Positions 30,789 to 61,452 of a stretch of DNA of 64,000 nucleotides are shown piece after piece; position 1 is the first letter of the stretch; each line of letters opens with the position of its first letter. The stretch is taken from assembly GCA_028280565.1 (NCBI GenBank), contig JANQLQ010000049.1, positions 1-64,000 of the forward strand, in the 5' to 3' direction. The translations under genes were made by a program, and so were the position numbers. The notes under the pieces are model-generated. The model made no database searches, was not told the origin of the DNA, and was given only the letters and a program-made list of their open reading frames with translations. Source of the DNA: Fulvivirga sp. Lineage in GTDB: Bacteria > Bacteroidota > Bacteroidia > Cytophagales > Cyclobacteriaceae.

Positions 30789-30789
30789 C

Positions 30790-32989: not shown

Positions 32990-32999
32990 CAAGCTTACT

Positions 33000-34417: not shown

Positions 34418-34661
34418 GAAACCTGAAATCAGCGGAGTCCGGGAAAATCCTGGGGCAGTAGGAAGTCGGAGGTAGAATATTAATTTTAACCATTTTGGTG
34501 ATAACAGTTACTATCTTTTCCATGTCACGACCTTTTCTTTTCCAATTTCTTATTTTCTTGCAAACTGTGACGATCTTCTCCTGTTCATATCTCGCTAGGG
34601 TTTGCACTTTGCGCTTACTTTGCGACCTTAGCGGTTGGTAACATTGGAATCTCGTATTGAA

Positions 34662-35797: not shown

Positions 35798-36190
35798 TCT
35801 TACAGCATCCTCTCGGTCTACCATGAAGCCAGCAATTTTCAATCAAGACGTTAAATACACTTTATTCGCTAGCTACTTAAGACGAGGGTTGTTTTATTCA
35901 TCGCACACGACGTGGTAGTTGCTGTTTCGATCTGTGGGCTAAATTAAGTCCTAGCCATAGAATGTTTGGTTAAAATGGAACGAAGGTCGATATATTTCGC
36001 TTCGCAAACTCAACGTGCGGGTGTTCATGACCCCTCAAATGGTATGTTTTTATCCAAAAGCAACCTATTAAAATACATGCCGATGGATATAATTCTGCAG
36101 GGTAGATATATCATTTCCTCCATTAATATGAGTATTTTGGCAAGGATGTTGATCATAAAAGAGTGTAACCCGCTGGAACCATTAAAACTT

Positions 36191-38439: not shown

Positions 38440-38915
38440 AGGGGAGATAAAACCTTCTCAGAGTCTCGCACAGGACCTTGGGTAAACAAACGCTAAACTA
38501 AAAACAAAAAACCCTTGTCCATCCAGGTCTACATATCGAACACTTTGAGATGTTTAGCTGTCCCTTAGCATCCTGCATGTGGTTGGATTATATCCATCAT
38601 ACCCTATTCCAATGGAAGTGGAGTTTGGTGGAAGGCTATGGATTATTGTCATTCGATATCGAGGTGGAAAGTAGGCGGAAATGAGCCGCGGGTGTTTCAT
38701 TTACGTGAGCTGGGATGCCCCGGAGTGTGGGTAGTGCCAAAACAAGCCTGGGTGCGCCGATCGACGAGGTCAAGGGTATGATTTCAGGGTCCAGGTACAA
38801 AAAAGCGGCATGGCGCAGAGTGGATACAAAACACTGGAAGAATGAGGAGTTGGTACTTTATTTGATTCGGTTAAAAAAGAATAAGATGTTTTTAATTATT
38901 GATAAAGGAGGAATA

Positions 38916-40064
38916 ATGTTCAAAATAATTTTAATCGTAATTCTATTGATTACTTATGATGCTTATGGACAAGAAATACTTCTCAAGAAGAGTGTTTTAT
39001 TGCGGAATATTACTGCCAAGGGACAAGTATTCAGTTCTGGTAAACGATATTTTGAAGTAAGAAAAGGTACTAGAGGAGAAAGTGTAATATCAGAAACAGG
39101 TCAAACTTATATTCTCAAAGAAAACGAACATGTCGTAGATATTCAAGGCCCATCCATTCTAACCAAAAGTGTAGAAGCTAACAAAGCTACGTTGCACCTT
39201 TACAAACTTGATGAAAATAGTAGTATGTCCGCTATTGGGGTTACTAATATCGAGACAGGAGGAAACGCTTCTTTTCTTGGTGGCGGCTTGGTGATATTGA
39301 CGGATGAATACGAGCTTTTTGGAAGATACATCAGGTTTTATTCCGATACTCTAACTGAAATTAAATCAATTAGGCCATTCGAAGATAGCGGATTCCAAAA
39401 TGTAGAATACGCTGATAACAATGAGGTTATATTAGTTTTGGCGATGTCAAAGGATAAGCAAACAAAATTGTTATTGTTTGATAAAGCAAACCTTACTCTT
39501 AAGAAAGAAAGTAATCTCTACGAAAAGATAGTTCCGAATTCAGTCAAATCTTTTGATCCTGGTTTTATAGTTTATGGTAGATCTACAGTCTCCTACATTG
39601 ATAATCAAGGTAACCTGGTTTGGAGTAAAAATTTACTCCTTCCAAGGAAGGAGATAGAGGTTTTTCAAGAAAGACTATTTTTAATTACAAGAGCTGGATT
39701 AATTTGTTTAGATGCCACAACTGGAGCAATCAAGTGGCAAAGAACCATTTCTTCCTTTTATCCACATACATTAATCAGCAACGCAAATGAATTACCTAAT
39801 ATAGAAATCCGACCAATTGTTATGAAAGCCATTTTTGAAAAAGGCTCTAAATTGGCTTTAGTCATAGGCCAAACAAAAAAGGGTTCAATAAACCCTACAT
39901 ACCCTATATACAATTCTGAATTATATGTATTCAATAATAATGGGGATGTTATATTTAATAGTCATCTAGCAGATAAATCTCACGTTATTCAATTAGAAAC
40001 TCGTCAAAATACCTTTTCCATCATAAAAGATGCGGTAGTCGAAATCTATGAAAACATCAACTAA
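38916..40064 (+). CDS. Exported hypothetical protein with PQQ-like/beta-propeller features
   Basis: RBS aaaggagg before ATG; signal MFKIILIVILLITYDAYG; NQGNLVWSKNLLLPRKEIEVFQERLFLITRAGLICLDATTGAIKWQRTI. Confidence 0.7.
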   Translation: MFKIILIVILLITYDAYGQEILLKKSVLLRNITAKGQVFSSGKRYFEVRKGTRGESVISETGQTYILKENEHVVDIQGPSILTKSVEANKATLHLYKLDENSSMSAIGVTNIETGGNASFLGGGLVILTDEYELFGRYIRFYSDTLTEIKSIRPFEDSGFQNVEYADNNEVILVLAMSKDKQTKLLLFDKANLTLKKESNLYEKIVPNSVKSFDPGFIVYGRSTVSYIDNQGNLVWSKNLLLPRKEIEVFQERLFLITRAGLICLDATTGAIKWQRTISSFYPHTLISNANELPNIEIRPIVMKAIFEKGSKLALVIGQTKKGSINPTYPIYNSELYVFNNNGDVIFNSHLADKSHVIQLETRQNTFSIIKDAVVEIYENIN

Positions 40065-40242
40065 CCTTATAATACTTCTAATCGGTTTTGGGCTTAATAG
40101 ATAGTGCAATAGTGCAAATCACCCGGTCTGTAAGACCAAACGGCGTGGAACACATAATTACTGGGACTATTGGTGAATATAGGAATGATGATCGTTTTCG
40201 CCAGGGTGTAAATATCATCGCCAATGTAACGTTCATATTATG
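40048..40242 (+). pseudogene. Remnant of an exported protein (possibly M23-peptidase-like N-terminus)
   Basis: MKTSTNLIILLIGFGLNR* then, frameshifted, AIVQITRSVRPNGVEHIITGTIGEYRNDDRFRQGVNIIANVTF; start overlaps the stop of the upstream gene. Confidence 0.5.
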
Positions 40243-41400
40243 AAAAAACATTTTACAACGGTTGTATTACTTTTATTCGGAATGGACTTGTTTGGTCAGT
40301 TAAGCCTGGAAAAAGCTATCATACCTGGCTATAAAGAAAGGCAAATTTATGCCATAGATCAGAATCTGTTCCTAATAGGAACTAAGGGCAACTTCAAAGA
40401 AATAATATTAAATGACCAAAAAAAGGGAACGATAGGTAAAGATGAAGAAATAAGCTACTTAAACTTGGACGACCTTTTTACCATTAAAAAAGACCCATAT
40501 TGTCATTTCGGTGGAGGACAATTAGAGCTTTCAAAGTACTCATTCAGTGGAAGTTTACTTAAAGAATCAAGCATGGTATATCCATGTTTTGAATCAAGTA
40601 TCAGTCATTTTTTAGATGGTTCATTCCTTATTAAGGACGAGGGAGAAGAAGGGGGATATGAATTCAAGTTTTTTGATAACGATCTTAAGTATGTAAATAG
40701 TCACATTCCATTCGAAAAAGGATACCACAACTCCCATCACACCACTTCAGGTAATTTACTTTTTTTGGCAGCCAATCCAAAAGACTTAAACAAGCGTCCA
40801 ACAGTCTTTCTTTTAACTAACAAAGGCGAATTACTATTTAGGAAAAGTATGAATGGAAAAAGCGAATTACTTAAAGTTAAGAGCTCGAAAAACTATTTTG
40901 CTGTATATTGCTTTTCTTCACACACCGATCTCCACCAAATCCATATATTCGATCGAACAGGAAATACAGTTTGGTCAAAGGAGATAAGTAATCAAGTTGA
41001 AAATTGGTCATTTCTTACCGATACCCCTCAAAAACTTCTAGTAGCGGATAGCGATCAACTTGTTTTACATAGTATTGATGATGGTGCAGTGTTATACAGG
41101 AAACCATTCAGCCAGATTTTCCGGGAAGAGGGATTTAGGCGTTTCAGGAACGACCATTACCTGGAAATAATCGAAGTTATAAATTTTGGCAAAGGGTTTG
41201 CCGTGCTTTTATCAGAACCAACTGGTCTTCGGTCTTTCAAGAATAATATTTTATATATGGTGAGAGATCTTGAAAAATCAGCAGAATCTTTTACTCTAAA
41301 GCTTGACGATTCTAATGTTCAACCTTCACTTATCAGCACAACTGGAGAAATGCACATACTACTTGACAATAAAATCTTAAGCTATGGACAAGGTAAATAG
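40240..41400 (+). CDS. Exported hypothetical protein, WD/PQQ-like repeats
   Basis: Signal MKKHFTTVVLLLFGMDLFGQ; repeats such as IHIFDRTGNTVWSKEIS and LVLHSIDDGAVLYRKPF. Confidence 0.7.
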   Translation: MKKHFTTVVLLLFGMDLFGQLSLEKAIIPGYKERQIYAIDQNLFLIGTKGNFKEIILNDQKKGTIGKDEEISYLNLDDLFTIKKDPYCHFGGGQLELSKYSFSGSLLKESSMVYPCFESSISHFLDGSFLIKDEGEEGGYEFKFFDNDLKYVNSHIPFEKGYHNSHHTTSGNLLFLAANPKDLNKRPTVFLLTNKGELLFRKSMNGKSELLKVKSSKNYFAVYCFSSHTDLHQIHIFDRTGNTVWSKEISNQVENWSFLTDTPQKLLVADSDQLVLHSIDDGAVLYRKPFSQIFREEGFRRFRNDHYLEIIEVINFGKGFAVLLSEPTGLRSFKNNILYMVRDLEKSAESFTLKLDDSNVQPSLISTTGEMHILLDNKILSYGQGK

Positions 41401-44861: not shown

Positions 44862-44892
44862 GTTTTCAACCTCCCCAGGTCTCTCGTAGAGG

Positions 44893-45237
44893 ATCCTGGA
44901 CAAACGAGCCACAAACCAAAAAATGATAAACTTTTCTCCCTTACAACAGCATGCCGACAACTTTGAGATGTGCATCTTTCGGCTTGCCTGCCATAAAGGA
45001 CTTCCTCTTTTTGAAATAGAGAATTTCTACAATATCGTATGCCCTTGGTTTGATATTATTGAAGTAGGTGGGTTACTTTATTGGATAACACTAAAGTAGC
45101 CTAGACCTTTTACAGGAGACCTTGTGGAGGGTGATGTAAAACATCAAATCACCATTAGGGAACTCACTATTTCTGAGGCACGGGCGCATCACCGGCTCGA
45201 TTATTCGGAAAATATAAAGCAACAAAATGTAAGCTAA
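44893..45237 (+). pseudogene. Coding remnant with an internal stop
   Basis: ILDKRATNQKMINFSPLQQHADNFEMCIFRLACHKGLPLFEIENFYNIVCPWFDIIEVGGLLYWITLK*PRPFTGDLVEGDVKHQITIRELTISEARAHHRLDYSENIKQQNVS* in one frame. Confidence 0.45.
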
Positions 45238-45793
45238 TTTTACTTAACTATACAAAAGCGACTGGAGGCTGACCTATTAGTATAGTTTTTAGACAAATTA
45301 AGGCAAAAAAAGTGATTTATGTCAGTGTAATATCTGGCCTGCATAAAAAACATTTTTGTTCCCGATCATTGACTAACTTATACTCAGAAACGGTCGCTTA
45401 ACGTGAGCCGACCATTTTATGATTGTATCACCCTAACCCCTAAACCAATGAAAAAAATTATCTTATTGTATACTGCCTGTGGCATCCCGTTCCGGTTAGC
45501 ATAAACCCGCTCAGGCGTATCCACTGCAATCGGTTATTAAAAGATCAAAGACCTGTTGTTTGATTTAACTGGCAGAATACGGGTATTTAAAGATCGGCCA
45601 TCATACTATCCACAGTATTATGTGTGACATATGCTAAATCCCAACATTAGGTTTAAATCCTATGCCACAAGGGTAGCATTTGGACATTCCTAGTTCTGCA
45701 ACCTACGTTAGCTGGATTCAAATTACAGTTGATGAACATAGCAAGTACTGCTCTACTCAAATCACTAAGTGAAACGTATCAAAACACATTAAA

Positions 45794-46630
45794 ATGAAAA
45801 CTACTTTCACAATCCTATTCAACCTATTTTTTTTAATAGGTGTAACAGCACAGAATAACCCCGTCACATTTGATCCTGGGGAGGCAGCTGGCGGCGATAT
45901 TTTTGGTATTAAAGCTACGGAGACAGGGAACAACACCACTAAATTCCATATCTACAAAAATTTCACGAATGACGCTACAGACCAGGAAAAACTGGTGATC
46001 ACAGCCGATGGCAGCGTAGGAATAGGCACAGCAAACCCCGATGCTACTTTTCATATTTACTCTGCTGGGAACGTGGGGAATGGTAATGTTCTTTCTTCTT
46101 TTATGATCGGTAAAACTAACGGGCCAGGAATACGAGCGATCCAGCAGGCTGTCGATGATGATGTACAATCTCTTTTCTCCAGGGTGAAATCGTCCCAGGT
46201 GTTTACTGATAACAGTTTTGAAGCTATGCGGATACATGCTAATGGCAATGTAGGGATAGGCACTACCAACCCTACTTCAAAACTCTCGGTAAAAGGCCGC
46301 ATTCACGCAGAAGAAGTAAAAGTAGATCTTAATGTTCCCCGTCCAGATTATGTTTTTGAGGAGGATTACGACCTCACCACCTTAGAAAGCCTTCAGAATT
46401 ACATCCGGGAAAACAAACACCTACCGGAAGTTCCTTCAGCCGCCGAAATGAAAGAAAATGGGGTTGATCTCGGGGTGATGAATATGTTGCTGTTGAAAAA
46501 GATTGAGGAACTTACCCTTTACTTAATTGACGAAGCTAACCATCGCAAAGCACAAAAAGCTTTGATCCAGCAACTGCTCCAAAGAATACAAGAATTAGAA
46601 ATCCAACTCGAAAACTACGATAAGCCATGA
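45794..46630 (+). CDS. Exported GNVGIGT-repeat surface protein, paralog 1
   Basis: Signal peptide; GSVGIGTANP, GNVGIGTTNP; C-terminal RIHAEEVKVDLNVPRPDYVFEEDYDLTTLESLQNYIRENKHLPEVPSAAEMKENGVDLGVMNMLLLKKIEELTLYLI. Confidence 0.8.
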   Translation: MKTTFTILFNLFFLIGVTAQNNPVTFDPGEAAGGDIFGIKATETGNNTTKFHIYKNFTNDATDQEKLVITADGSVGIGTANPDATFHIYSAGNVGNGNVLSSFMIGKTNGPGIRAIQQAVDDDVQSLFSRVKSSQVFTDNSFEAMRIHANGNVGIGTTNPTSKLSVKGRIHAEEVKVDLNVPRPDYVFEEDYDLTTLESLQNYIRENKHLPEVPSAAEMKENGVDLGVMNMLLLKKIEELTLYLIDEANHRKAQKALIQQLLQRIQELEIQLENYDKP

Positions 46631-47532
46631 AGACGATCTTTTCCTTTCTTGCTTTTTTATGTTGTGTAACGGTAACGGTGCATTCTCAAAATACCTTTCC
46701 AACCTCGGGTAACGTGGGGATTGGTACTCTTAATCCGCAGGTAAAGTTAGATGTCGTTGGGCCGGTACGCTTTAACTTCGGGAGACTTACACATTCAGGT
46801 AATTTGCCGAATGATAACAACGCCACATTTGTAAATACAGCCTCTACTGGATATGGAATTTATTCCAAAGGAGGGGCAGGTACAAGATACTCCTTCCATT
46901 TTGAGAACCAGGAAGGGGTTTCAGTTTTGATTGGCAAAGGAAACGGGAATGTGGGGATAGGTACGGTTAATCCACAAGCCAAGTTAGAAGTAATAGGATC
47001 TGTAAGATTTTCTGGTGCTAGGTTGACACATTCAGGTGATATTCCTAATGACAACAATGCGGTGTTTGTTAATACTTCAGGTTTGGGCTATGGCCTTTAT
47101 TCAAAAGGAGGAATCGATTCGAGATACTCCTTCCATTTTGAAAACCAACAAGGACTATCTGTTTTGTATGGACGAGGTGACGGTAAAATTGGTGTTGGTA
47201 CCACAGCTCCCGATGCTCGGCTCACCGTCAAAGGAGACATCCATGCCGAAGAAGTCCGTGTAGATCTGACAGTCCCCGGTCCGGATTACGTTTTTGAAGA
47301 AGATTACGACCTGCCTACGCTGGAAAGCCTCAAAGAATATGTCCAAGAAAATAAGCATTTACCAGGAACCCCTTCCGCTGCTGAAATGGAGGTAAACGGG
47401 ATTGATCTCGGGGTGATGAATATGCTTTTGCTAAAGAAAGTGGAGGAGCTGACACTTTATGTGATTGAGTTAAAGGAGGAGAACAAGATGCAAAATGAAC
47501 TTATCCAAGAAATGATCTATAACCAAAAATAA
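46627..47532 (+). CDS. Exported GNVGIGT-repeat surface protein, paralog 2
   Basis: Same C-terminal module; contains an internal 79-aa duplication; ATGA overlap with paralog 1. Confidence 0.8.
   Translation: MKTIFSFLAFLCCVTVTVHSQNTFPTSGNVGIGTLNPQVKLDVVGPVRFNFGRLTHSGNLPNDNNATFVNTASTGYGIYSKGGAGTRYSFHFENQEGVSVLIGKGNGNVGIGTVNPQAKLEVIGSVRFSGARLTHSGDIPNDNNAVFVNTSGLGYGLYSKGGIDSRYSFHFENQQGLSVLYGRGDGKIGVGTTAPDARLTVKGDIHAEEVRVDLTVPGPDYVFEEDYDLPTLESLKEYVQENKHLPGTPSAAEMEVNGIDLGVMNMLLLKKVEELTLYVIELKEENKMQNELIQEMIYNQK
46708..47181 (+). repeat. Two 237-bp intragenic repeats (46708-46944 and 46945-47181)
   Basis: GNVGIGTLNPQVKLDVVGPVRFNFGRLTHSGNLPNDNNATFVNTASTGYGIYSKGGAGTRYSFHFENQEGVSVLIGKGN versus GNVGIGTVNPQAKLEVIGSVRFSGARLTHSGDIPNDNNAVFVNTSGLGYGLYSKGGIDSRYSFHFENQQGLSVLYGRGD. 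Confidence 0.95.
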
Positions 47533-47533
47533 A

Positions 47534-48568
47534 ATGAAGAGAACACTTACCATTTGCTTAGCCATGTGCCTTAGCTACCTCTCTTTTTCTCAATGGAATG
47601 GAGGGACTGGCCCTAACCAAATTGATGGACTGATCGAACGAAATGGAAATGTAAAAGCCAATAACCTCTTTTTTGGAAAATATGGTGGTTCCATACTTGG
47701 CAATCCTGATCCTTTCGCGATTTATTCAGATGCGATCAGTGCTGAACAAGACCTTTTGCTTTTTGGGAATCATGACGCCGTTTTGCATCTAAGGGTTTGG
47801 GATGGAGACCTTAAGATAGGCTCCAGTCCAAATGCAATAATTCATAATGATGGATCTGCTTTTTTCAATGGAAAACTTGGGATTGCAACTTCTAATCCAG
47901 TGGAAAGACTTGATCTAGGCTTAGATTCCAAAATAAACATCAAGATCGGTCGATGGGCTTCAGTGGGAGTTACCGGTAGCGGCATTGCGACAATAATCGG
48001 CAATAACGCAAAAGCCAGTACTACCCTAGATAACACCATGGAATTCATGACAACTACTGTTGATGGTGCTAAGGCTATAAAAATGCAATATAATGAAGGG
48101 ATATCCTTTCACACCTACAGGGGTAGTGTTACATCCGGGCAGGCTTTTGATGGTTATGAAAGGATGAGAATAAACAATAACGGTAACGTTCTTATTGGCA
48201 AAACCTCTCAAGCTAACCCGGCCTACAGGCTGGACATAGCCGGCTCGGTGAGAGCCAACGAAATTGTGGTCAATACCACGGGGGCAGACTATGTCTTTAA
48301 AGCAGATTACACACGGAAAAGCTTAAGGGAGGTTGAAAGCTTTATCCAGGAGAACGGTCACCTGCCGGGTATCCCTTCGGCCGAAGAAATGCAAGAAAGT
48401 GGGATGGCTGTGGGAGAACTGAATACCAAGCTGTTGGAGAAGATTGAAGAGTTAACATTGTATGTGATCGAGTTAGAGAGAGAAAACTCTGCTTTAAAAG
48501 AAAACCTATTTAAAATCGATGAATTAGCCAATAGGTTAAAGTCTCTCGAAAATGCTCTTAACGAGTGA
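47534..48568 (+). CDS. Exported surface protein, paralog 3 (diverged C-terminus)
   Basis: Signal peptide; RLDIAGSVRANEIVVNTTGADYVFKADYTRKSLREVESFIQENGHLPGIPSAEEMQESGMAVGELNTKLLEKIEELTLYVIELERE. Confidence 0.8.
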   Translation: MKRTLTICLAMCLSYLSFSQWNGGTGPNQIDGLIERNGNVKANNLFFGKYGGSILGNPDPFAIYSDAISAEQDLLLFGNHDAVLHLRVWDGDLKIGSSPNAIIHNDGSAFFNGKLGIATSNPVERLDLGLDSKINIKIGRWASVGVTGSGIATIIGNNAKASTTLDNTMEFMTTTVDGAKAIKMQYNEGISFHTYRGSVTSGQAFDGYERMRINNNGNVLIGKTSQANPAYRLDIAGSVRANEIVVNTTGADYVFKADYTRKSLREVESFIQENGHLPGIPSAEEMQESGMAVGELNTKLLEKIEELTLYVIELERENSALKENLFKIDELANRLKSLENALNE

Positions 48569-48777
48569 ACCTGGTTTTTGTGTTAGGGCCTTACTCCCCA
48601 GCGGTTATAAGACACCCACTTTCATCGATTGATATCCATCGTGAATCAAAGTGTAAAAAAACTGCCTTGATCAATCGTAAACATTCAGCAAGTAGCCTGG
48701 ATGAGTATGACCGACTTGAATTGACAGTTAAATGTCTATACAATAGTAAATTTTAAAGTAGTCAAAATCCCTTTATC

Positions 48778-49791
48778 ATGAAAAAAGCTGTAGTTGTAAT
48801 ATTCTTATCCTTTTGGTCAACATTAGCATTTACTCAAAACACATTCCCTTCTTCCGGCAATGTAGGGATCGGTACCTCTACACCCGGGGCGCTCTTGGAT
48901 ATAAGCTCACCCGGTGACGGGGCAGACTTGTTAAGGTTTGCGATAGATCGTCCTTGGGTCTTTCGTCAGCAAGGCTCAGGTGCGACAACAAGCTTGGTCC
49001 TTAAGTCGCTGAATGCTGATAAATTCTTTATTATCAAAGATGACCTGGATCACGATGTTTTTCGTATCCAGTCCACCGAAGGTTCTGCCTTTTTCAAAGG
49101 TAATATGGGCATAGGGCAGTTAAATGCCACTACCAAGTTAGAGGTGCGCGAATCAAAAAGCTTGGCGGACATTAATGCCAATAACGTAGTAGATGTTTTG
49201 AAAGTGAACTTATCCATCCAGGATGGTTTTGTCCCTGGTGATGCAGAGAATAGGATTGTTTTTGATCACCAACAGTGGGGCAGTGGAGGTTCACGTACTT
49301 TTTCTGCCATTGGCTCCGCAAAAGAGGCGGATTCCGGGGGGCTTTATGGTGGCGGACGTCTTGTTTTCTACACCTTGGCAGGGGACCCGGGAGGGCAAAC
49401 TGGCCCGGGCATGTCAGAAAGGATGCGGATCAATAGGGAAGGAAATGTAAGCATCGGTACCCCTTCGGCTGATGCGAAACTGACCGTAAAAGGTGACATC
49501 CACGCCGAAGAAGTCCGCGTGGACCTCACTGTACCTGGCCCGGATTATGTTTTTGAAGAAGACTATGATCTACCCACATTAAAGAGCCTTCAAAGCTATA
49601 TCCAGGAAAATAAGCATTTGCCGGAGGTGCCCCCAGCGCGTACGATGGAGGAGAGTGGGATCGACTTAGGGGTAATGAACATGCTGTTACTCAAGAAAGT
49701 AGAGGAACTAACACTGCATTTGATCCAACAAAATGAAAACATGGAGAGAATGCAAGATGAGATTGATGAACTAAAAAAAGCTAAAAAATGA
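48778..49791 (+). CDS. Exported GNVGIGT-repeat surface protein, paralog 4
   Basis: Signal peptide; GNVGIGTSTPGALLDIS; shared C-terminal module GDIHAEEVRVDLTVPGPDYVFEEDYDLPTLKSLQSYIQENKHLPEVPPA. Confidence 0.8.
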   Translation: MKKAVVVIFLSFWSTLAFTQNTFPSSGNVGIGTSTPGALLDISSPGDGADLLRFAIDRPWVFRQQGSGATTSLVLKSLNADKFFIIKDDLDHDVFRIQSTEGSAFFKGNMGIGQLNATTKLEVRESKSLADINANNVVDVLKVNLSIQDGFVPGDAENRIVFDHQQWGSGGSRTFSAIGSAKEADSGGLYGGGRLVFYTLAGDPGGQTGPGMSERMRINREGNVSIGTPSADAKLTVKGDIHAEEVRVDLTVPGPDYVFEEDYDLPTLKSLQSYIQENKHLPEVPPARTMEESGIDLGVMNMLLLKKVEELTLHLIQQNENMERMQDEIDELKKAKK

Positions 49792-50786
49792 AACCAATCG
49801 CTATTTTACCGATCCTAATTTGTTCATTTACCGGGTTATTTGGACAACAAGGTACTATCATATTTAACAATTCTGCCACGCCAGGTCTAAACTCCATCGG
49901 GCCATTCGATGCCAACAAGAGTCTTCGTCTCAATGGCGAAAGGAATATTGAACTGGTGATCAACGAAGAAAATCAATACGGGGATGCTGCACTGAACATC
50001 TGGAAAGACGGTATAGGAACGGTCCCGTTTTTCAGGGTGCAAAACGATGGAAGGGTCGGGATCGGTACGGCCACACCTTCTCAAAGATTAGAGATATTTA
50101 ATCAATCCCCCTTTAATATGAATGAGGGTAGTGAATTCCAGGATCACATCTCCCTGCATTCGGTTGAACATGGTCAAGGAAGTTTTTTTGGAGGGATAAC
50201 GTGGAGGTCAGCGGCCGGCCGGCGTCGCGCCGCTATTGCAGCTACGCGTGAACATCCGGATGCCGATTTCATTGGCCTGGCCTTTTTTACACGAGGAACG
50301 GACGGCCCAGGGCCTATGTATGAAAGTATGAGGATCACAAGGAATGGCGCCGTTGGGATCGGTACTACTGCTCCCGATGCTACGCTTGCCGTAAAAGGCG
50401 ATATCCACGCCGAAGAAGTACGAGTGGATCTTAATGTACCCGGTCCTGATTATGTTTTCGAGGAAGATTATGACTTGCCTTCTCTTAGCAGCGTTCAAAA
50501 CCATATTCGTAAATACAGACATCTCCCAGGAATCCCTCCGGCAAAAGTAATGGAAGCAAACGGGATAGAGGTGGGTAAAATGAATATGCTGCTCTTAAAA
50601 AAAGTTGAAGAGCTCACTTTGTATGTCATACAGCAGGAGGGAAAGATCACCGAGTTGAGAGAAGGGCAAAATTCAAAAGAGAAAGACTTAGAAGTTAAAA
50701 TCAATAGACTCATGCTTCAGCAAGGGGAATTATTAGAAAGGCTGGAGGCCCAAGGTCGAAGGATAAAAGAACTAAGTAGCAATTAA
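49788..50786 (+). CDS. Exported GNVGIGT-repeat surface protein, paralog 5
   Basis: Signal peptide; GRVGIGTATPSQRLEI; GDIHAEEVRVDLNVPGPDYVFEEDYDLPSLSSVQNHIRKYRHLPGIPPA; ATGA overlap with paralog 4. Confidence 0.8.
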   Translation: MKPIAILPILICSFTGLFGQQGTIIFNNSATPGLNSIGPFDANKSLRLNGERNIELVINEENQYGDAALNIWKDGIGTVPFFRVQNDGRVGIGTATPSQRLEIFNQSPFNMNEGSEFQDHISLHSVEHGQGSFFGGITWRSAAGRRRAAIAATREHPDADFIGLAFFTRGTDGPGPMYESMRITRNGAVGIGTTAPDATLAVKGDIHAEEVRVDLNVPGPDYVFEEDYDLPSLSSVQNHIRKYRHLPGIPPAKVMEANGIEVGKMNMLLLKKVEELTLYVIQQEGKITELREGQNSKEKDLEVKINRLMLQQGELLERLEAQGRRIKELSSN

Positions 50787-50869: not shown

Positions 50870-52081
50870 ATGATGAAAAGTTTAATAAGTATTACTGTAA
50901 TCTTTGTTGTTCTACATACCATGGTGTATGGGGTAGACGTCGAATTTACCATTAAGAATAATGTCGGTGATCCAATCATTATTAATTCTGACAAAACATT
51001 TTCTGCCGAGATCATATTGAAATCAACACGCTCTACGCCCCATGGACAACTGGAGATATTCTTAAGGAATCCGGATGGAAACGCCGAAAGAGTATACTAT
51101 TGCGGTGGGAGCCTTTGTGTAAGAGCCGAGAACTGGATATGGGCAGACAATTTAAGTTCGTATGTTTTTTTGGCGGAAAATATATCGTTTGATGTAGAGA
51201 CAGCGATACATCAGCAGGGTTATGGCCAGCTATTTGCCAGGTTTAGGACAAGCTCAGGGACAAATCATAACAGCGAATCCTATGAAACATTGAAAGATAC
51301 CGTCAAACCGCTTCCTGTAAGTAATTTGAGGGGAGATGAAATCACGAGTAACAGCTTTACTTTACGATGGAACACGGGTGCGGATAATGTCGGTGTTGAG
51401 GGATATAGGATTTTCCAGGGAAGTGCTAAAGTCGGTGAAACGGCGAGTAATTTCTTAGCGCTTAGTGACCTTACAAGCTGTACCTCGTACACGCTTTCCG
51501 TGGAATCCTATGATAAGGTGGGCAATGTATCTTCTAGGTCCACCACCACGGTACAGACCACCTCCGGTCAGCCACAAACGGTAGTTTTAAACACAGATAG
51601 AACAAATGATGTCACCTTAAGCGTAGAAGCAATAACCCAGGTGACGCTAGTGAACGGTTTTGTTTTCAAAGCAGCGTCCAGTTCACATTCCTTTTCAGCA
51701 AGGATAGTGAGTGATGCGTGCCAATCGGCATCTCCAGGTCGCCTGGCATATTTTGGCGATATTAATCGAGAGCCAATAGAAGATGACCAGGGTGCCGAAA
51801 CTGTTACTGAACCTGGAGTATTGGGTAATCCCTGGGGTGAAACGAGTTTTCATATTTATCCTAATCCTACCCATCGTTACTTAAACATAGCCTGTAATGA
51901 AAATGGATTTTTCAAGGTGGTGGTGATCTCACAAACGGGTGTGATCGCTAAAGAGTTCGATGCCTTTGGACGTTTGTTTACCCTCGATGTATCTGCTCTC
52001 AAAAATGGAGTCTATTGGGTAAAAGTGATAAAACCGGGGCATAACAGTGCTGAGGTTTTTAAGCTTGCTGTCAACCATTAG
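50870..52081 (+). CDS. Secreted fibronectin type III protein with T9SS type A C-terminal sorting domain
   Basis: Fn3-like PLPVSNLRGDEITSNSFTLRWNTGADNVGVEGYRIFQ...; C-terminus FHIYPNPTHRYLNIACNENGFFKVVVISQTGVIAKEFDAFGRLFTLDVSALKNGVYWVKV. Confidence 0.85.
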   Translation: MMKSLISITVIFVVLHTMVYGVDVEFTIKNNVGDPIIINSDKTFSAEIILKSTRSTPHGQLEIFLRNPDGNAERVYYCGGSLCVRAENWIWADNLSSYVFLAENISFDVETAIHQQGYGQLFARFRTSSGTNHNSESYETLKDTVKPLPVSNLRGDEITSNSFTLRWNTGADNVGVEGYRIFQGSAKVGETASNFLALSDLTSCTSYTLSVESYDKVGNVSSRSTTTVQTTSGQPQTVVLNTDRTNDVTLSVEAITQVTLVNGFVFKAASSSHSFSARIVSDACQSASPGRLAYFGDINREPIEDDQGAETVTEPGVLGNPWGETSFHIYPNPTHRYLNIACNENGFFKVVVISQTGVIAKEFDAFGRLFTLDVSALKNGVYWVKVIKPGHNSAEVFKLAVNH

Positions 52082-52269: not shown

Positions 52270-53382
52270 ATGAAAAAAGCGCTTATTACAGGTATTACCG
52301 GTCAAGATGGGGCTTATTTGGCAGAGTTCTTACTCAATAAGGGGTATGAAGTACATGGCATAAAAAGGAGAAGCTCCCTGTTCAATACGGACAGGATCGA
52401 CCATTTGTACCAAGATCCCCATGAACAGGATTTGAGGTTAAAATTACACTATGGAGACCTCACGGATTCAGCCAATATTATCCGGATTATCCAAGAGGTG
52501 CAACCGGATGAGATCTATAACTTGGGGGCCATGTCACATGTAAAAGTCAGCTTCGATGCCCCGGAATATACAGCGAATGTCGACGGTTTGGGTACGCTAC
52601 GCATTTTAGAAGCAGTGCGTTTGCTAGGATTGACCCAGAAAACAAAAATATATCAAGCGAGTACCTCGGAGCTCTACGGGCTAGTGCAGGAAGTGCCGCA
52701 AAAGGAAACGACACCCTTTTATCCTAGGTCGCCTTATGCTGCAGCTAAGCTCTACGGCTATTGGATCACCGTAAACTACAGGGAGGCTTACGGCATGTTC
52801 GCTACAAACGGTATACTTTTCAACCACGAGTCCCCATTGAGAGGCGAGACTTTCGTTACCCGGAAGATCACTCGTGCCGCGGCTCGAATTGCGCTGGGAC
52901 TTCAAGACACCCTATACCTCGGGAACCTGGACGCTAAAAGAGACTGGGGTCATGCCAAGGACTATGTAGAAGCGATGTGGCTCATCCTCCAACAAAAGGA
53001 ACCAGAAGACTTTGTCATAGCTACAGGTATAACAACGACAGTAAGAGAATTTGTACTCAAAGTTTTTACTGCATTGGGGATAGCCCTGGAGTTTGAAGGC
53101 AAAGAAGATAACGAGATCGCTCGTGTGGCTGGGTTTACAGATCCTGCTTTTAAGGTGAAAGAAGGACAAGTAGTAGTAAAAGTGGATCCCACCTATTACA
53201 GGCCTACCGAGGTAGACTTGCTGATCGGGGACCCGACTAAAGCAAAAGAAAAGTTAGGCTGGCAACCCAAGTATAACTTGGACCAACTGGTAGAAGATAT
53301 GGTCCGAGCTGACATTGAGCTATTTAAAAAAGACCAATATCTCCACGAAGGAGGCCATAAGATCCTGAATTATCACGAATAG
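52270..53382 (+). CDS. gmd: GDP-mannose 4,6-dehydratase
   Basis: [54 protein letters not shown]. Confidence 0.96.
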
Positions 53383-54320
53383 TGAATAAAAACGCTAAAA
53401 TATACATTGCCGGTCATAAGGGTATGGTGGGCTCAGCCATTTTGAGAAGGCTGCAAAAAGAAGGTTTTGAAAATTTTGTTCTTCGGTCTTCCAAAGAGCT
53501 GGATTTAAGGGTACAACAAGACGTTGAAAACTTCTTTAAGGAAGAAAAGCCGGAATACGTTTTCCTAGCTGCTGCCAAAGTCGGGGGTATCCTTGCTAAC
53601 AATACTTATCGTGCGGAATTCTTGTATGATAACTTAATGATCCAAAACAATGTAATCCACCAGGCCTATGTTAACGGAGTAAAAAAGCTACTGTTCCTTG
53701 GGTCGTCTTGCATTTATCCCAAGCATGCTCCCCAACCCTTAAAAGAAGAGTACCTACTAACAGGGGAATTAGAGCCTACCAATGAGCCCTACGCCATAGC
53801 CAAAATTGCAGGTATAAAGATGTGCGACGCTTACCGGGATCAATATGGCTGTAATTTTATTTCCGCCATGCCTACTAATTTGTATGGCCCGAATGATAAT
53901 TATGATCTTAAAACTTCCCATGTGCTGCCGGCTCTAATACGGAAGTTCCATGAGGCCAAGGTAGAAAATAAGCCTTTCGTGGAGGTTTGGGGAACGGGTT
54001 CGCCGAGGCGGGAGTTTATGCATGTGGATGATTTGGCGGGTGCTTGTTTGTTTCTGATGGAGAATTATAATGAACCGGGGTTTGTGAATGTAGGTACGGG
54101 GGTAGATGTGACGATCAAGGAGTTAGCGGAGATGATCAGGGATATTGTTGGGTATGTGGGGAAAATCCAGTGGGATACTTCTAAACCGGATGGGACACCT
54201 AGGAAGTTGATGGATGTTTCATTGTTAGGCAAAATGGAATGGGAAAGCAGGATTGATCTGGAAGAAGGTTTGAGGTTAGAAATAGAGAGTTTAGCCTCAA
54301 TTTTGAAACATGAAGTTTAG
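53382..54320 (+). CDS. fcl: GDP-L-fucose synthase
   Basis: [56 protein letters not shown] start overlapping the gmd stop. Confidence 0.95.
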
Positions 54321-54625
54321 TCCCTTCATCCAATAAATTATAGGTAAGATCTTTTAAAAATCGAGAATAACCTTTCCTGAGATCTGTTGTACTTCGAATC
54401 TTTGTTAAGCTTTAATCGCAGTTTTTGTATACCAGTATTAGGAAGTGGATCTTAAACCATAAGCTAGATAGAATGTGCCCTTACATTAGTTGGGGAGAAT
54501 CTTTTTTGAGTGAAATTAATGATGTACCAAAGACGCAAAGGAATTATCATTTACCGATCTAATTATTGAAGTTGAGAAGAAGTAGTTAAGAATACTTAAA
54601 ATTGAAATAATCCATATAAAGTGGT

Positions 54626-55381
54626 ATGAGCAACCAGAAAAATGAAGTCCGTGAATTTTATAATCAATTTGCCTATGATGTCTTGTTAGAAGACCTTAAA
54701 CTACCTAATAGAAGACAGCTAGAAGTAATAAAGTTATGCAAGAACTTTGTTCATAAGAAATCAAGGGTCTTAGAAATTGGCTGCGGTATCGGTATAATAA
54801 CAAAAGCATTGGCCAGCAGTGTTGGTGAGATCAAGGGTTTGGATATTAGTGATAAAAACATTCAAATAGCAAGTAAAATTTCTAGTGCTAAGAACATTTC
54901 ATTTTACTGTATTAACATTATTGAAGATAACTTAGAAAGTTTAAAGAACTATGATTTTGTAATATTGGCTGATGTGATTGAGCATATTCCCCTTGACAGA
55001 CATGAAGAATTATTCGAGAAAATTTGGGATGTCACCAATGAGAATGCATCGGTTATATTAACCTACCCATCTCCTGAATACCAAGTTTTTTTGAGGGAAA
55101 AAAATCCAAGTGCATTGCAGATTATTGATGAAGTTATTCAAGTCAATTCTATTTTGTCTTCAAGTCAAATGAACTTAAGGTACTTTTCTTATAAAAGTGT
55201 TTTTGGGAACCTAAATAACTACTGTCACCTTGTCTTAACAAAGACAACGAAATTCGTTAAAAAAGGAAAAAAGTATTCTTTTTTCAATAAAATTCAATTT
55301 AAGCTTCAATCTATGACTTGGAGAGTCCAGAACCTGCTTGCTTATAGGAAATTGAAAAATCTTAGGTCTAGACAAGCTTAA
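54626..55381 (+). CDS. SAM-dependent class I methyltransferase
   Basis: VLEIGCGIGIITKALASSVGEIKGLDIS, DFVILADVIEHIP. Confidence 0.85.
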   Translation: MSNQKNEVREFYNQFAYDVLLEDLKLPNRRQLEVIKLCKNFVHKKSRVLEIGCGIGIITKALASSVGEIKGLDISDKNIQIASKISSAKNISFYCINIIEDNLESLKNYDFVILADVIEHIPLDRHEELFEKIWDVTNENASVILTYPSPEYQVFLREKNPSALQIIDEVIQVNSILSSSQMNLRYFSYKSVFGNLNNYCHLVLTKTTKFVKKGKKYSFFNKIQFKLQSMTWRVQNLLAYRKLKNLRSRQA

Positions 55382-55436
55382 GCTTCAATTAAAATTGAAT
55401 GTTTGGTAATAAATTCATTCTCCCTTTATAGTAAAT

Positions 55437-56603
55437 ATGCATAAACCAAAAATCGCGGTTTATACGCGGAATTATCTGAATAATTCCATGACTTTTATTT
55501 TTAGACAAATAAAACAAATGGATAGTTCGTATGATATACATGTTTTTACAACAGAGATTCGAAATCTCAATAAGTTTAAACGATCAAACATTCATTGCTT
55601 CAAAAGAAGTTATGTTGAGGAAATCATAAGTAAAATAAAAACCAAATTCTTTGGTAAATATCAAAACTTATCTTTCAGACAGATTAACTCTTTTTCAGCC
55701 CTGATAGACGAGAATAAAATAGAGTTAATTCACGCTCATTTTGGGTATGGAGCCCTACAAATCTATCCTATTGCGAAAAAAAAACATATCCCGTTGTTAG
55801 TCCATTTTCATGGAGTAGATGCTTCACTGATGTTAAAAAAAAAGAATTATGTCGAACAGCTAAGGGAAATGATGAAATATGCTAAAGCAATAGCAGTTTC
55901 TAAACATATTGCTGCGAACCTAATAGATGCAGGCATTCCCGAAGATAGGATTGAGGTTCAATACTTAGGCATACCAATTGAGCTTTTCAAGTATGTCAAG
56001 AGAACTAGCCCTTCCAAATTGATAAAAACTCATCGCAATTTACAGTTTATCCAAGTGTCAAACTTTGTTGAAAAAAAGGGGCATATTTATTCAATCCTTG
56101 CATTTCAAAAATTATTAAACATTTGCCCAGGAGCACATTTAAATTTGATTGGAGAGGGGCCACTTTTGCATTCCTGTAAAAAAGTAGTCCACAAAAATGG
56201 TCTCTCTAATAAGATAAAGTTCCTAGGGGTAAAGAATTCTGAAGAGGTGGCAGAAATAATGAAAAAATCAGACATTTTCCTGCACCATAGTATAACAAGT
56301 AAAAAGGGAGATCAAGAAGGGTTACCTACAGTGCTGATGGAGGCAATGTCAACCGGGATGATAATAATAAGCACATTTCATAGTGGAATCCCTGAACTGG
56401 TAAAAAATGGATTCAATGGATTCTTAGTCAGGGAAAAGGACATAGAGGGATATTTTTTCGCGATGAAAGAAGTTTTACAACTTGGTGATGATAGAATAAA
56501 TCAAAATGCCAGGAAAACAGTTGTGTCTAGCTTCAGATTGGATAAAAATACTGAATATTTAAAGAAAAAATATTCAGATACTATCACTAAAAAACAATTT
56601 TGA
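55437..56603 (+). CDS. Glycosyltransferase (GT4-like)
   Basis: HAHFGYGALQIYPIAKKKHIPLLVHFHGVD, FVEKKGHIYSI, EGLPTVLMEAMSTGMIII. Confidence 0.9.
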   Translation: MHKPKIAVYTRNYLNNSMTFIFRQIKQMDSSYDIHVFTTEIRNLNKFKRSNIHCFKRSYVEEIISKIKTKFFGKYQNLSFRQINSFSALIDENKIELIHAHFGYGALQIYPIAKKKHIPLLVHFHGVDASLMLKKKNYVEQLREMMKYAKAIAVSKHIAANLIDAGIPEDRIEVQYLGIPIELFKYVKRTSPSKLIKTHRNLQFIQVSNFVEKKGHIYSILAFQKLLNICPGAHLNLIGEGPLLHSCKKVVHKNGLSNKIKFLGVKNSEEVAEIMKKSDIFLHHSITSKKGDQEGLPTVLMEAMSTGMIIISTFHSGIPELVKNGFNGFLVREKDIEGYFFAMKEVLQLGDDRINQNARKTVVSSFRLDKNTEYLKKKYSDTITKKQF

Positions 56604-56856
56604 ATTTTTTTCCTGCCTTTCGATAACTTCGTAATAGGTAGTTGTCCAACAGCTTATGTAAACATGCAATATTCACTGTTCAAATGCCCCTGACATTCAT
56701 TGTTGGACTCAATAAGCTTTTCATTCTAGGGGGTAGCCTATTGTCAATAAGATGATATGATGAGTGCCTAAATTTTAAGGATGCAAAAAAGACTTCACTT
56801 CATGCCGTTTAAAACCATATATCAGCATTGATGTATAAAAACAAAAAATACGATGA

Positions 56857-58293
56857 TTGATTGTTGTCCATATGAACATTAAAAAGCAAGTTTTCTCAGG
56901 GGTCAAATGGACTACAATATCGACCATATTTGTAGCTGTTGCTAATCTTATTAAAATCTCAGTTTTAACCCGTTTTTTAAATGAGTCTGATTTTGGTCTT
57001 ATGGCCATTGTTTCTATAGTCATTGGTTTTGGTGATATGTTCATGGACTTGGGGCTCACTTCAGCCATTTTGTATAAACAAGAAATAAAGAAAAATGAAT
57101 ACTCCAGTCTGTACTGGTTTAATTTGGTTTTTAGCATCCTTGTTTTTCTGGTGATTTGGATATTTACACCCTTTATTTCTTCCTTCTATAATGAACCCGA
57201 ATTAAATCAACTCATTCCTCTTACAGGGGTTAATGTCATTGCATCCGGTCTGGGTAGACAATTCAAGACTATCGATCAAAAAAAAATGAGGTTTCAGTCT
57301 ATTTCAATAATAGAGATTTTGGCAGCCTTAGCTTCATTAGTCTTATCTATCATTTTGGCAATTTTAGGATTTGGCATTTATGCATTGGTCTATTCTGTGA
57401 TATTGCAGCTAAGCGTAAGCAATATTATCTTTTTGCTGAAAGGCACAAAGTTGGAAGGTCTTTTGTTTTACTTTGACTTTCGAGATGTAAAACCATTTCT
57501 GAAAATAGGTATTTATCGTGTCGGTGGACAAATCGTAAACTATTTCAGCCGTGATTTGGACATTCTGATAATAGGTAAACTGTTTGGTACAGAAATATTA
57601 GGAGGATATAGTTTGGCGAAGCAGCTCGTGCGTCGGCCCCTGAGCATAGTGGATTACGTTGTTTCCAGAGTCTCAAACTCAATTTTACCAAAATTCCAAG
57701 ACAACAAAGAAAAATTAGGTGCTCATATTTCTGAAATTTTGACAAAACTGAGCCTGGTAAATGCACTAGTATATGGACTAATAGCTATAGCGGCTTCTAG
57801 TTTGGTACATATTCTTTATGGAAAAGAATACTATAATATTGTCACAATAGTCCAAATATTTGCGCCAATTGTCTTCTTAAGGTCCATGGCCGGACAAGTA
57901 GGAGTCCTTGTCATAGCCAAAGGAAGAACAGATTTAGAGTTTTATTGGAATATCTTGACATTTTTTGTGTATCCCCTTGCCATTTATTTGGGTTCTGCTT
58001 ACCAAATTCAAGGAGTTACTATTGCATTGTTAATTACTCAACTTATTATGATGGTACCGATATGGTATTTTTTTTATAACAAATTAATCGGGTACGAATT
58101 GATTAAATATTTAAGGATAATTTGTAACCCTCTTGTTATTGGCTTTGTTGCTTTTTCCTTTTATAGTTTTGCTGAAGACTATGGTATTTTCATGCAATTT
58201 TTGTCGTCTATTATTTTGTGCTTGATGCTGTTAGCATATGGGTATTACTATGATAATGACGTTTCAATGGTTTTAAAAAAGGTGTTCAAATAA
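56857..58293 (+). CDS. Polysaccharide flippase (Wzx/MOP family)
   Basis: KQVFSGVKWTTISTIFVAVANLIKISVLTRFLNESDFGLMAI; multi-TM; likely start 56872. Confidence 0.88.
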   Translation: MIVVHMNIKKQVFSGVKWTTISTIFVAVANLIKISVLTRFLNESDFGLMAIVSIVIGFGDMFMDLGLTSAILYKQEIKKNEYSSLYWFNLVFSILVFLVIWIFTPFISSFYNEPELNQLIPLTGVNVIASGLGRQFKTIDQKKMRFQSISIIEILAALASLVLSIILAILGFGIYALVYSVILQLSVSNIIFLLKGTKLEGLLFYFDFRDVKPFLKIGIYRVGGQIVNYFSRDLDILIIGKLFGTEILGGYSLAKQLVRRPLSIVDYVVSRVSNSILPKFQDNKEKLGAHISEILTKLSLVNALVYGLIAIAASSLVHILYGKEYYNIVTIVQIFAPIVFLRSMAGQVGVLVIAKGRTDLEFYWNILTFFVYPLAIYLGSAYQIQGVTIALLITQLIMMVPIWYFFYNKLIGYELIKYLRIICNPLVIGFVAFSFYSFAEDYGIFMQFLSSIILCLMLLAYGYYYDNDVSMVLKKVFK

Positions 58294-58297
58294 TACT

Positions 58298-60019
58298 ATG
58301 TCTGGGTTTGTTTTTGTTTATGGTAAATTAAAATACGAGTCATCTTATGATAGCGATGACTTTATCTTAAATGATAAGATTATTGGAGATAATTACGTCA
58401 TTCATCGAAGTACATTGAGCAAATTTATTGAAGATAAAGTTTTCTATAATAGTGAAGGGTATATCGTTGTTATTGAAGGCATAATTGTTAACAAGGCTGA
58501 GCTGTTAGGGAACAGTACAAGTTGGAGCCAAAGAGTTATTGAACTTTATCAATTGCATGGTGACTCGTTTTATAAAGATTTTAGGGGATCTTTTTCTGGA
58601 TTGATTTATGACAAAAAACAAGAAAAGTGGATAATATTCTCTGACCAAATTGGCAGTAAGCACATTTATTATTCTAAGATGAGTGGTGAAAGATACATTT
58701 TTGCCTCAAATATTAGCGAGGTATATCGAGTGTTAGATTTAAACAATGTTACAAATTCATTAGATACAAATGCTGCTTATATGTTACTGTCCTATGGTTA
58801 TATGCTGGGGGATCGCACATTGTCAACTACCATTAAAAGGGTTGAGCCTGGGAGCTATCTTAAAATTCAAAGGGACCAACTTTCTAAACATGAATACTTC
58901 AGGTTTACTAATATCCCAGACAGCAGATTGACAGAGGATGATATTATTGAACAAGCAGATTTCCTTTTCCAACAAGCCATAAGGAGACAGTTTGAAAAAG
59001 ATTTAGAGTATGGATACAAGCACTTCGTTTCTTTAAGTGGGGGGTTGGATTCAAGAATGACCTCTTACGTAGGAAATAAACTAGGTTATAAGAACCAGTT
59101 AAATTTTACATTTTCTCAAACTAATTATCTCGATGAGACTATTCCGAAAAAGATTGCCGAGGATTTGAGACATGAGTGGATTTTTAAATCATTGGATAAC
59201 GGGCTTTTTTTGCTAGATGTGGACTACATTACATCAATCACAGGAGGAAATGTATTGTATTATAGCCTAGCTCATATCATGAGTTTGTATAAGTATACTG
59301 ATTTTACTCTTTTAGGAATTGTACACTCTGGACAATTAGGGGATGTAATTTTAGGTACGTACAGCACTAACCCTTACCACATAAACGATTTTGACCCTGG
59401 CAGCGGCGCCTTTTCAAACAAATATTTGGATCAGATAGAATTTTCGGACCTTAACATGTCTTATGAAAATGAGGAAATGTTTAAGATGTATTCTAGGGGA
59501 TTTAATGGGATCAATTCTAGCGCACTTGCTACCCATCAATTCACCGAAACACTTTCCCCATTTTGCGATGTAGACTTTATGGATTTTGTTCTTAAAATCC
59601 CATTAAAGCTTCGATTCAACCATTATATTTATATTAAACTGATACGTAAGAAGTATCCAAAACTTGCTGGTTATATATGGGAAAGAACAAAGCGAAGGCC
59701 AACAAAAGTGCCACATAAAATAAGCTTTAAAGGAAAATACATAACGCTACAGGATCTTCCGGTTAAGTTATTGGAAAAAGTAAAACTGAGGAAATCACCT
59801 ATGCTTACAAAAAAGCATATGAACCCCTTCGGTTATTGGTATAAAACCAATGAAGAATTAAGACTCTACTTTGATCAATACTTAAAAGATAGCATAGATG
59901 TTCTAGATAGTAACCCTGCCCTAAAGCAAGACTGTTATCGACTTTATTCGAACGGAAATGCCAGGGAGAAAATTCAAGTGATATCACTTCTTTCCGCTGT
60001 TGATAGGTTCTTTAAATAG
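58298..60019 (+). CDS. Asparagine synthase-like protein with Ser in place of the N-terminal Cys
   Basis: MSGFVFVYG... N-terminal Ntn-like region; PP-loop FVSLSGGLDSRMTS. Confidence 0.85.
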   Translation: MSGFVFVYGKLKYESSYDSDDFILNDKIIGDNYVIHRSTLSKFIEDKVFYNSEGYIVVIEGIIVNKAELLGNSTSWSQRVIELYQLHGDSFYKDFRGSFSGLIYDKKQEKWIIFSDQIGSKHIYYSKMSGERYIFASNISEVYRVLDLNNVTNSLDTNAAYMLLSYGYMLGDRTLSTTIKRVEPGSYLKIQRDQLSKHEYFRFTNIPDSRLTEDDIIEQADFLFQQAIRRQFEKDLEYGYKHFVSLSGGLDSRMTSYVGNKLGYKNQLNFTFSQTNYLDETIPKKIAEDLRHEWIFKSLDNGLFLLDVDYITSITGGNVLYYSLAHIMSLYKYTDFTLLGIVHSGQLGDVILGTYSTNPYHINDFDPGSGAFSNKYLDQIEFSDLNMSYENEEMFKMYSRGFNGINSSALATHQFTETLSPFCDVDFMDFVLKIPLKLRFNHYIYIKLIRKKYPKLAGYIWERTKRRPTKVPHKISFKGKYITLQDLPVKLLEKVKLRKSPMLTKKHMNPFGYWYKTNEELRLYFDQYLKDSIDVLDSNPALKQDCYRLYSNGNAREKIQVISLLSAVDRFFK

Positions 60020-60075
60020 ATAAGTTTCCGTTGCTGAAGTACTTTGAGTAATCGTAGGATTGAATAGTTAACATC

Positions 60076-61317: not shown

Positions 61318-61452
61318 AAATCAAAATTTATCATTGCTATACTATATTCAAGACTTCCCAAGATTATGTCTGCAACAGGAATGTCTGCAGATCGAAAGGT
61401 GGCTATTAAAGACTTAAATTACCCAATTAACGTATAAATTTGTTGTAAAATC

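What the first reader, a model, noticed from the sequence alone, without database searches (positions are those of the whole stretch)
45794..50786. Five tandem exported paralogs with variable centres and a nearly constant C-terminal module
All five have a signal peptide, GNVGIGT.NP..KL-type beta-repeat units reminiscent of tail-fiber proteins, a variable middle, and a C-terminal module (HAEEVRVDL.VPGPDYVFEEDYDLPTLESLQ.YI.ENKHLP..PSA.EM...GIDLGVMNMLLLKKVEELTLY.I + coiled coil). Paralogs 1, 2, 4 and 5 are close in this module; paralog 3 is diverged. ATGA overlaps join 1-2 and 4-5. The layout suits segmental gene conversion and surface variation with a shared anchor or trimerisation domain. This family is common but uncharacterised in Bacteroidota.
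Basis: partly seen in the sequence, partly recalled or inferred. Interest (0 to 1): 0.6.

Follow-up and report, generated by a model that had tools for sequence, protein, structure and literature searches.

The report
Tandem trimeric surface-fibre genes
Five neighbouring genes encode exported, probably three-stranded fibre proteins like those the predator Bdellovibrio uses to recognise prey, each ending in a conserved, undescribed module that in many other bacteria sits beside toxin and secretion genes, which this genome's array lacks.

Summary
In detail: five co-directional genes (45794-50786), each with a signal peptide, GNVGIGTxxPxxKL beta repeats, a divergent centre and a strictly C-terminal ~78-residue module (here MOD) ending in a coiled coil. 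p3 is an old, separate subtype.

The repeats match the solved shafts of Bdellovibrio "mosaic adhesive trimer" (MAT) fibres (p1 alone vs Bd2133, E 7e-9). MOD matches no Pfam, NCBIfam or PDB entry. It caps the shaft where other proteins of these genomes carry the S74 chaperone, and never with it. Copies in phage contigs lack signal peptides, so MOD is not an export signal. Best reading: short MAT-like trimeric adhesins with MOD as trimerisation cap.

Recent gene conversion among the five is refuted (synonymous sites saturated). Family-wide, centres and MODs have discordant histories, so centres are exchanged over long times.

Not foreseen: MOD arrays across Bacteroidota lie upstream of, and co-oriented with, RHS genes (37 of 117 clusters), and often beside type II-secretion-like genes. 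A Persicobacter plasmid carries 13+4 fibres, both RHS genes and the secretion genes in one block. The window genome has no detectable T2SS and no RHS gene near this array: an orphan array in a polysaccharide locus. Function is inferred, untested.

The parts
45794..46630 (+). p1: exported fibre protein, 278 aa (signal peptide, 2 GIGT repeats, MOD, coiled coil)
   Evidence: alone hits PDB 8ond (Bd2133) E 6.8e-9
46301..46534 (+). MOD of p1
   Evidence: profile hit E 5.9e-46
46627..47532 (+). p2: exported fibre protein, 301 aa, 3 GIGT repeats; overlaps p1 by ATGA
   Evidence: AF2 model mdf507c94dddc
47239..47469 (+). MOD of p2
   Evidence: E 1.7e-45; AF2 three helices, the last 40 residues long
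47534..48568 (+). p3: exported fibre protein, 344 aa, divergent MOD subtype
   Evidence: MOD about 50% to the others; clade with G013:C71:7064-type and G003 genes, 99/98
48248..48472 (+). MOD of p3 (subtype VRANEIVVNTTGADYVF)
   Evidence: E 6.6e-38
48569..48777 (+). 209 bp gap between p3 and p4; place where the syntenic G004 array (3 + 2 genes) carries the RHS pair
   Evidence: no RHS remnant found by tblastn; G004 and G013 layouts
48778..49791 (+). p4: exported fibre protein, 337 aa, 3 GIGT-type repeats
49498..49731 (+). MOD of p4
   Evidence: E 5.2e-46
49788..50786 (+). p5: exported fibre protein, 332 aa, longest coiled coil; overlaps p4 by ATGA
50403..50636 (+). MOD of p5
   Evidence: E 1.7e-45
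50870..52081 (+). neighbour, 83 bp after p5: secreted fn3 protein with T9SS sorting domain; membership in the array's function uncertain
   Evidence: Por_Secre_tail 4.2e-9, fn3 2.1e-6

Best explanation
The five genes are a battery of short, exported, probably homotrimeric adhesin fibres of the kind described as mosaic adhesive trimers (MAT) in Bdellovibrio. Signal peptide: export to the periplasm (inferred from sequence). GIGT..P..KL repeats: capping loops of an intertwined trimeric beta-helix shaft (shown as homology to solved shafts). The divergent centres are further beta-helix faces and probably bind surface glycans or other target epitopes (inferred). MOD plus coiled coil is a C-terminal cap that starts or holds trimerisation; it takes the place that the S74 intramolecular chaperone has in sister proteins, but has no S74 catalytic motif and shows no sequence homology to S74 (place shown, role inferred). 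Several variants expressed side by side would give the cell a set of target specificities. In many relatives such arrays are the upstream part of a run ending in RHS toxin-like genes, often next to T2SS-like genes, so the family's wider role is probably target recognition for contact-dependent toxin delivery (inferred from gene order). The window array stands without these partners near it, inside a polysaccharide locus, and is best read as an orphan adhesin battery.
For: Shaft homology: profile vs PDB 8ond 1.6e-18, 8oml 1.4e-11, 8ojn 1.8e-7, p1 alone 6.8e-9; Foldseek hits with E <= 0.001 are all Bdellovibrio MAT fibres; viral fold hits are largely tail fibres and S74 fibres. PHROG tail-fibre matches to 1e-12. 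MOD strictly C-terminal; predicted helix-helix-long helix, pLDDT mostly over 90. Same shaft in 12 of 16 S74 proteins of these genomes; MOD and S74 never together. Phage MOD proteins beside tail genes lack signal peptides, 272/279 cellular ones have one. Gene order: 37 of 117 MOD clusters with a co-oriented downstream RHS gene, 7 upstream, 2 opposite; 16 of 96 clusters near DUF6443 versus 1.65 expected in close relatives; GspE/GspD beside MOD in 15 of 76 loci; complete set on a Persicobacter plasmid.
Against: No trimer could be modelled; TM-scores to MAT shafts are low (0.2-0.4), as expected for a monomer model of an intertwined fibre. MAT proteins are about 1,000 aa with a conserved ~130 aa N-terminal domain and variable tips; these are about 300 aa, with the first repeat only a few residues after the signal peptide in p2 and p4, and constant at the C-terminus, so polarity on the cell may differ. 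The export route across the outer membrane is unknown here (no T2SS found in G000, no T9SS domain on the five). Adhesion and surface location are untested. The RHS/T2SS linkage does not hold for the window array itself.
Confidence: 0.62

Rival explanations
1. MOD is a C-terminal export or surface-anchoring signal, comparable in place to the T9SS sorting domain, and the rest is cargo.
For: Strictly C-terminal, ~80 residues, conserved over variable cargo, mostly in Bacteroidota.
Against: Predicted all-helical coiled coil, unlike the beta-sandwich T9SS domain (general knowledge); present without signal peptide at the end of large proteins beside baseplate, sheath and terminase genes in phage contigs; present in Fusobacteriota and Rhodobacterales plasmids, groups not known to have T9SS (general knowledge).
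Confidence: 0.13
2. The array is a phase- or antigenic-variation locus in which centres are swapped by recent gene conversion on constant flanks.
For: Constant module, divergent centres; family-wide discordance of centre and module; G015 array has MODs 90-95% identical with unrelated centres.
Against: In the window synonymous sites are saturated also in MOD; longest exact match 23 bp; p3 is an ancient subtype shared with other species.
Confidence: 0.08
3. MOD fibres are dedicated partners (docking, assembly or shuttle factors) of the RHS proteins rather than adhesins; similar MODs within an array reflect binding to a common partner.
For: Immediate co-oriented linkage MODn-A-B, with distances of 1-36 bp in 15 cases; MOD similar within many arrays.
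Against: Many MOD arrays, the window's included, have no RHS nearby; the varying part is the centre, which fits many targets better than one partner.
Confidence: 0.12
4. The array is a remnant of a prophage or tailocin.
For: Tail-fibre-like repeats; MOD found in genuine phage tail loci.
Against: Signal peptides on all five; no structural phage genes among the Pfam-scanned genes of 34.6-61.3 kb; polysaccharide genes on both sides; no MOD match in 50,697 phage records.
Confidence: 0.03

Closest known systems
Mosaic adhesive trimer (MAT) fibres of Bdellovibrio bacteriovorus (Caulton et al. 2024, PMC10769870), NS74 subgroup
   Same: Signal peptide, trimeric beta-helix shaft repeats of the same sequence type (8ond, 8oml, 8ojn), non-S74 C-terminus, multigene repertoire, mosaic make-up
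   Different: About 300 instead of ~1,000 aa; first repeat directly after the signal peptide in p2 and p4; helical MOD terminus not described in MAT; constant part C-terminal; tandem array
Peptidase_S74 / intramolecular chaperone (PF13884) tail-fibre and host proteins
   Same: Same shaft and same C-terminal position; long helix at the end
   Different: MOD lacks SDxxLK; profile comparison only 1.9% probability; no sign of autocleavage
Phage tail-fibre families phrog_9942 and phrog_18345
   Same: Shaft repeats
   Different: Exported by a cell, MOD instead of phage terminus
TANFOR polymorphic toxins of Bacteroidetes (Jana et al. 2020, PMC7073777)
   Same: Bacteroidota toxin loci with neighbouring exported surface proteins (fn3, PKD, T9SS domains) and downstream genes that look like immunity genes
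   Different: Linked toxin-like genes here are DUF6443/RHS; neighbours are MOD fibres, and T2SS-like rather than T9SS genes
T2SS-like system of Bacteroidetes (Cytophaga hutchinsonii, PMC5553014; placed apart from T2SS and with type IVa pili in PMC6668835)
   Same: GspD/E, pseudopilins, L-like genes found beside MOD arrays
   Different: Not present in the window's genome; no fibre or RHS substrates reported in the passages of the two papers that were checked

Membership tests
MAT superfamily (NS74) | Trimeric beta-helix shaft with GIGT-type capping loops | tested here: met
   Sequence homology E 1.6e-18 (profile), 6.8e-9 (p1 alone); Foldseek top hits. Trimer itself not modelled
MAT superfamily (NS74) | Signal peptide | tested here: met
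   Hydrophobic N-termini by own heuristic, all five
MAT superfamily (NS74) | Conserved ~130 aa beta-rich N-terminal domain after the signal peptide | tested here: inconclusive
   p2 and p4 start with a repeat directly after the signal peptide, which argues against it; MAT N-terminal sequence was not at hand
MAT superfamily (NS74) | Surface display and glycan or epitope binding | not testable with these tools
   needs experiments
Peptidase_S74 | PF13884 match with SDxxLK catalytic motif | tested here: not met
   No Pfam match in five paralogs or 110 MODs; hhalign probability 1.9%
T9SS substrate | C-terminal Por_Secre_tail domain | tested here: not met
   None in p1-p5; present only in the next gene 50870-52081
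MOD-RHS-T2SS gene block (proposed here) | MOD array with A and B RHS genes | tested here: not met
   None near the window array; met in 37 of 117 clusters elsewhere
MOD-RHS-T2SS gene block (proposed here) | T2SS-like genes in genome | tested here: not met
   No T2SSF, T2SSE or secretin in G000
Recent gene-conversion array | Low synonymous divergence in the constant segment | tested here: not met
   dS saturated, longest exact match 23 bp

The most novel reading that the evidence does not exclude
MOD fibres, the two-part RHS proteins (A and B) and the non-canonical T2SS-like machine are one undescribed, mobile, contact-dependent toxin-delivery system of Bacteroidota (and Haliovirga): the machine exports pre-assembled trimeric fibres and the RHS proteins, and the fibre repertoire sets the target range. 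The window array is the system's fibre battery kept as stand-alone adhesins after loss of the other parts.
Probability: 0.33. Interest if true: 0.85.

Novelty: new variant of a known kind. Interest (0 to 1): 0.6.

Why it matters
It ties a widespread family of unannotated proteins (MOD in 45 of 248 sampled Bacteroidota genomes) to a structurally solved class of target-recognition fibres, names a conserved C-terminal module that has no entry in Pfam, NCBIfam or PDB, and shows a gene linkage with RHS toxin-like genes and with the odd T2SS-like system of Bacteroidetes. That gives a testable answer to two open points: what that system secretes and how these RHS proteins could find target cells.

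Tried and rejected
S74 homology of MOD: hhalign 1.9%, slightly above 30 shuffles but not significant. RHS remnant in the window: none by tblastn. T2SS in the window genome: none. PDB fold match for MOD alone: none. Phage record match for MOD: none in the phages collection; IMG/VR loci with signal peptides (L109-L111, L113, L115, L117, L130) were discounted as probably host genes beside prophages or misassigned, by inference. Promoter and terminator scans: no more than shuffles; Bacteroidota-type promoter pattern not found directly upstream of the array. I first thought of the A protein as SpvB/TcB-like; that rests on memory of a motif and Pfam shows only PKD and RHS repeats, so it is not claimed. 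One array comparison script stopped after three arrays, so only G015, G030 and G034 were compared in that way.
Full report
OBSERVATION. The window (contig C101 of a 9.05 Mb genome) holds five co-directional ORFs at the stated place. p1/p2 and p4/p5 overlap by ATGA, p2/p3 are 1 bp apart, p3/p4 are 209 bp apart, and a secreted fn3 protein with a T9SS domain follows p5 after 83 bp. All five have Sec-type N-termini and GIGT-type repeats. The last ~78 residues before a short coiled coil, called MOD here, are 68-82% identical among p1, p2, p4, p5 and about 50% to p3, while the centres are 25-34%.

KIN. G000 has 13 MOD copies, five of them in this array; 30 of 59 relatives have MOD, and 45 of 248 genomes sampled over the phylum. 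MOD was also found in Balneola loci and on plasmids of Persicobacter, Haliovirga (Fusobacteriota), Leisingera and Tropicibacter (Rhodobacterales).

WHAT THE PARTS ARE. The repeat part matches PHROG tail-fibre families and, in the PDB, only the Bdellovibrio MAT fibres and weakly MyRF: profile E 1.6e-18 to 8ond, p1 alone 6.8e-9; Foldseek agrees. In the MAT paper (PMC10769870) these are surface-displayed trimeric fibres, one of which binds prey glycans. MOD has no family match in Pfam, NCBIfam (110 members; the few marginal hits are scattered) or PDB, and its predicted fold, two short helices and one 40-residue helix, has no PDB neighbour. MOD lies 5-49 residues from the C-terminus in the first 75 proteins and 1-88 in a further set. 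Twelve of 16 S74 proteins of the same genomes carry the same shaft, and none carries MOD: MOD and S74 are alternative ends. MOD is not recognisably homologous to S74 and lacks its catalytic motif. In phage contigs MOD ends large proteins without signal peptide next to baseplate wedge, sheath or terminase genes, so it is a structural cap and not an export signal.

EVOLUTION. Synonymous sites of MOD are saturated within the window array and the longest identical stretch is 23 bp: the module is kept by selection on protein, not by recent conversion. In the tree (few columns, many open forks) p1, p2, p4, p5 mix with G013 and G003 genes (96/94) and p3 falls with G013, G003 and G030 genes of its own subtype. 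Across arrays, centres and MODs disagree: best hit within own array 35/60 for MOD, 10/60 for centre, same partner 9/60; one G015 centre is 59% identical over 174 residues to a G003 gene with another MOD subtype. So centres are exchanged between genes over long times.

GENE CONTEXT. In relatives MOD arrays flank a pair of large RHS-type genes: A (RHS and PKD by Pfam) and B (DUF6443 with RHS); in one genome the two are fused with a C-terminal CHAP domain. Of 96 MOD clusters in relatives, 16 lie within 15 kb of a DUF6443 gene against 1.65 expected. Over 112 loci, 37 of 117 clusters have A or B downstream on the same strand within 6 kb, 20 of these within 400 bp, against 7 upstream and 2 opposite; other genes of the same loci: 65 of 1149 downstream on the same strand. 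The order recurs in Flavobacteriaceae, Sphingobacteriaceae and Cytophagales. That B proteins are toxins is inferred from architecture, not tested. Beside 15 of 76 named loci lie GspE and/or GspD, usually with pseudopilins and L-like genes (Pfam T2SSE to 1e-130, Secretin to 4e-36). The Persicobacter plasmid CP012864 has MODx13 - A - B - MODx4 - pseudopilins - GspE - GspD - GspL on one strand. Haliovirga pHIC has GspE, GspF, GspG, pseudopilins and secretin, then MODx5, LRR, fn3 and RHS on one strand. The named loci were chosen as best MOD hits, so frequencies there are not unbiased. G000 itself has no T2SSF, T2SSE or secretin, and no RHS gene or remnant near the array. The syntenic array of G004 (same polysaccharide locus, 3 + 2 MOD genes) carries the RHS pair between its third and fourth gene; the window has a 209 bp gap at the same rank, which suggests but does not prove loss.

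LITERATURE. Ten searches found no paper on MOD, DUF6443 or this linkage. The T2SS-like system of Bacteroidetes is known to act in secretion in Cytophaga and to branch away from true T2SS. Only open-licence papers were searched.

VERDICT. Ordinary in being one array of a widespread family, interesting because the family can now be filed as works-like MAT fibres with a new terminal module, and because its linkage elsewhere points to a delivery system not found described. For the window array the defensible claim is: orphan battery of short MAT-like adhesin fibres.

Noticed in passing
window 28506-35708 and 52270-63943: Surface polysaccharide locus on both sides of the array (UDP-sugar, rml, gmd/fcl, flippase, glycosyltransferase and Wzy-like genes; part of these named by Pfam, part by reading). 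MOD genes also sit in polysaccharide loci in G004, G013, G002 and on Leisingera and Tropicibacter plasmids.
   Followed up: partly
L238 (CP012864.1) 4455-40117: Persicobacter plasmid with 13 + 4 MOD fibres, RHS genes A and B and T2SS-like genes in one block; the record has no annotation.
   Followed up: yes
L239 (NZ_AP027060.1 235000-275000): Haliovirga abyssi (Fusobacteriota) plasmid with T2SS genes, MOD array, LRR, fn3 and RHS genes in one run.
   Followed up: yes
L051:7715-8926, L049:17119-18519, L064:13219-14712: Recurrent ~400-540 aa gene between RHS and MOD genes in Cytophagales; the C-terminal half looks like an outer-membrane barrel by eye; no convincing Pfam family in the two scanned.
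   Followed up: partly
window 38715-41400: Two exported proteins whose homologs directly follow MOD pairs in G009 and G001 (L065, L067); one has a weak PQQ propeller hit.
   Followed up: no
window 35966-38065: Protein combining LPP20 and ARPP-1 domains inside the polysaccharide region.
   Followed up: no
window 44862-45793: 932 bp without a convincing gene upstream of the array; contains ATGAAAAAAATTATC... like the start of a decayed signal-peptide gene.
   Followed up: partly
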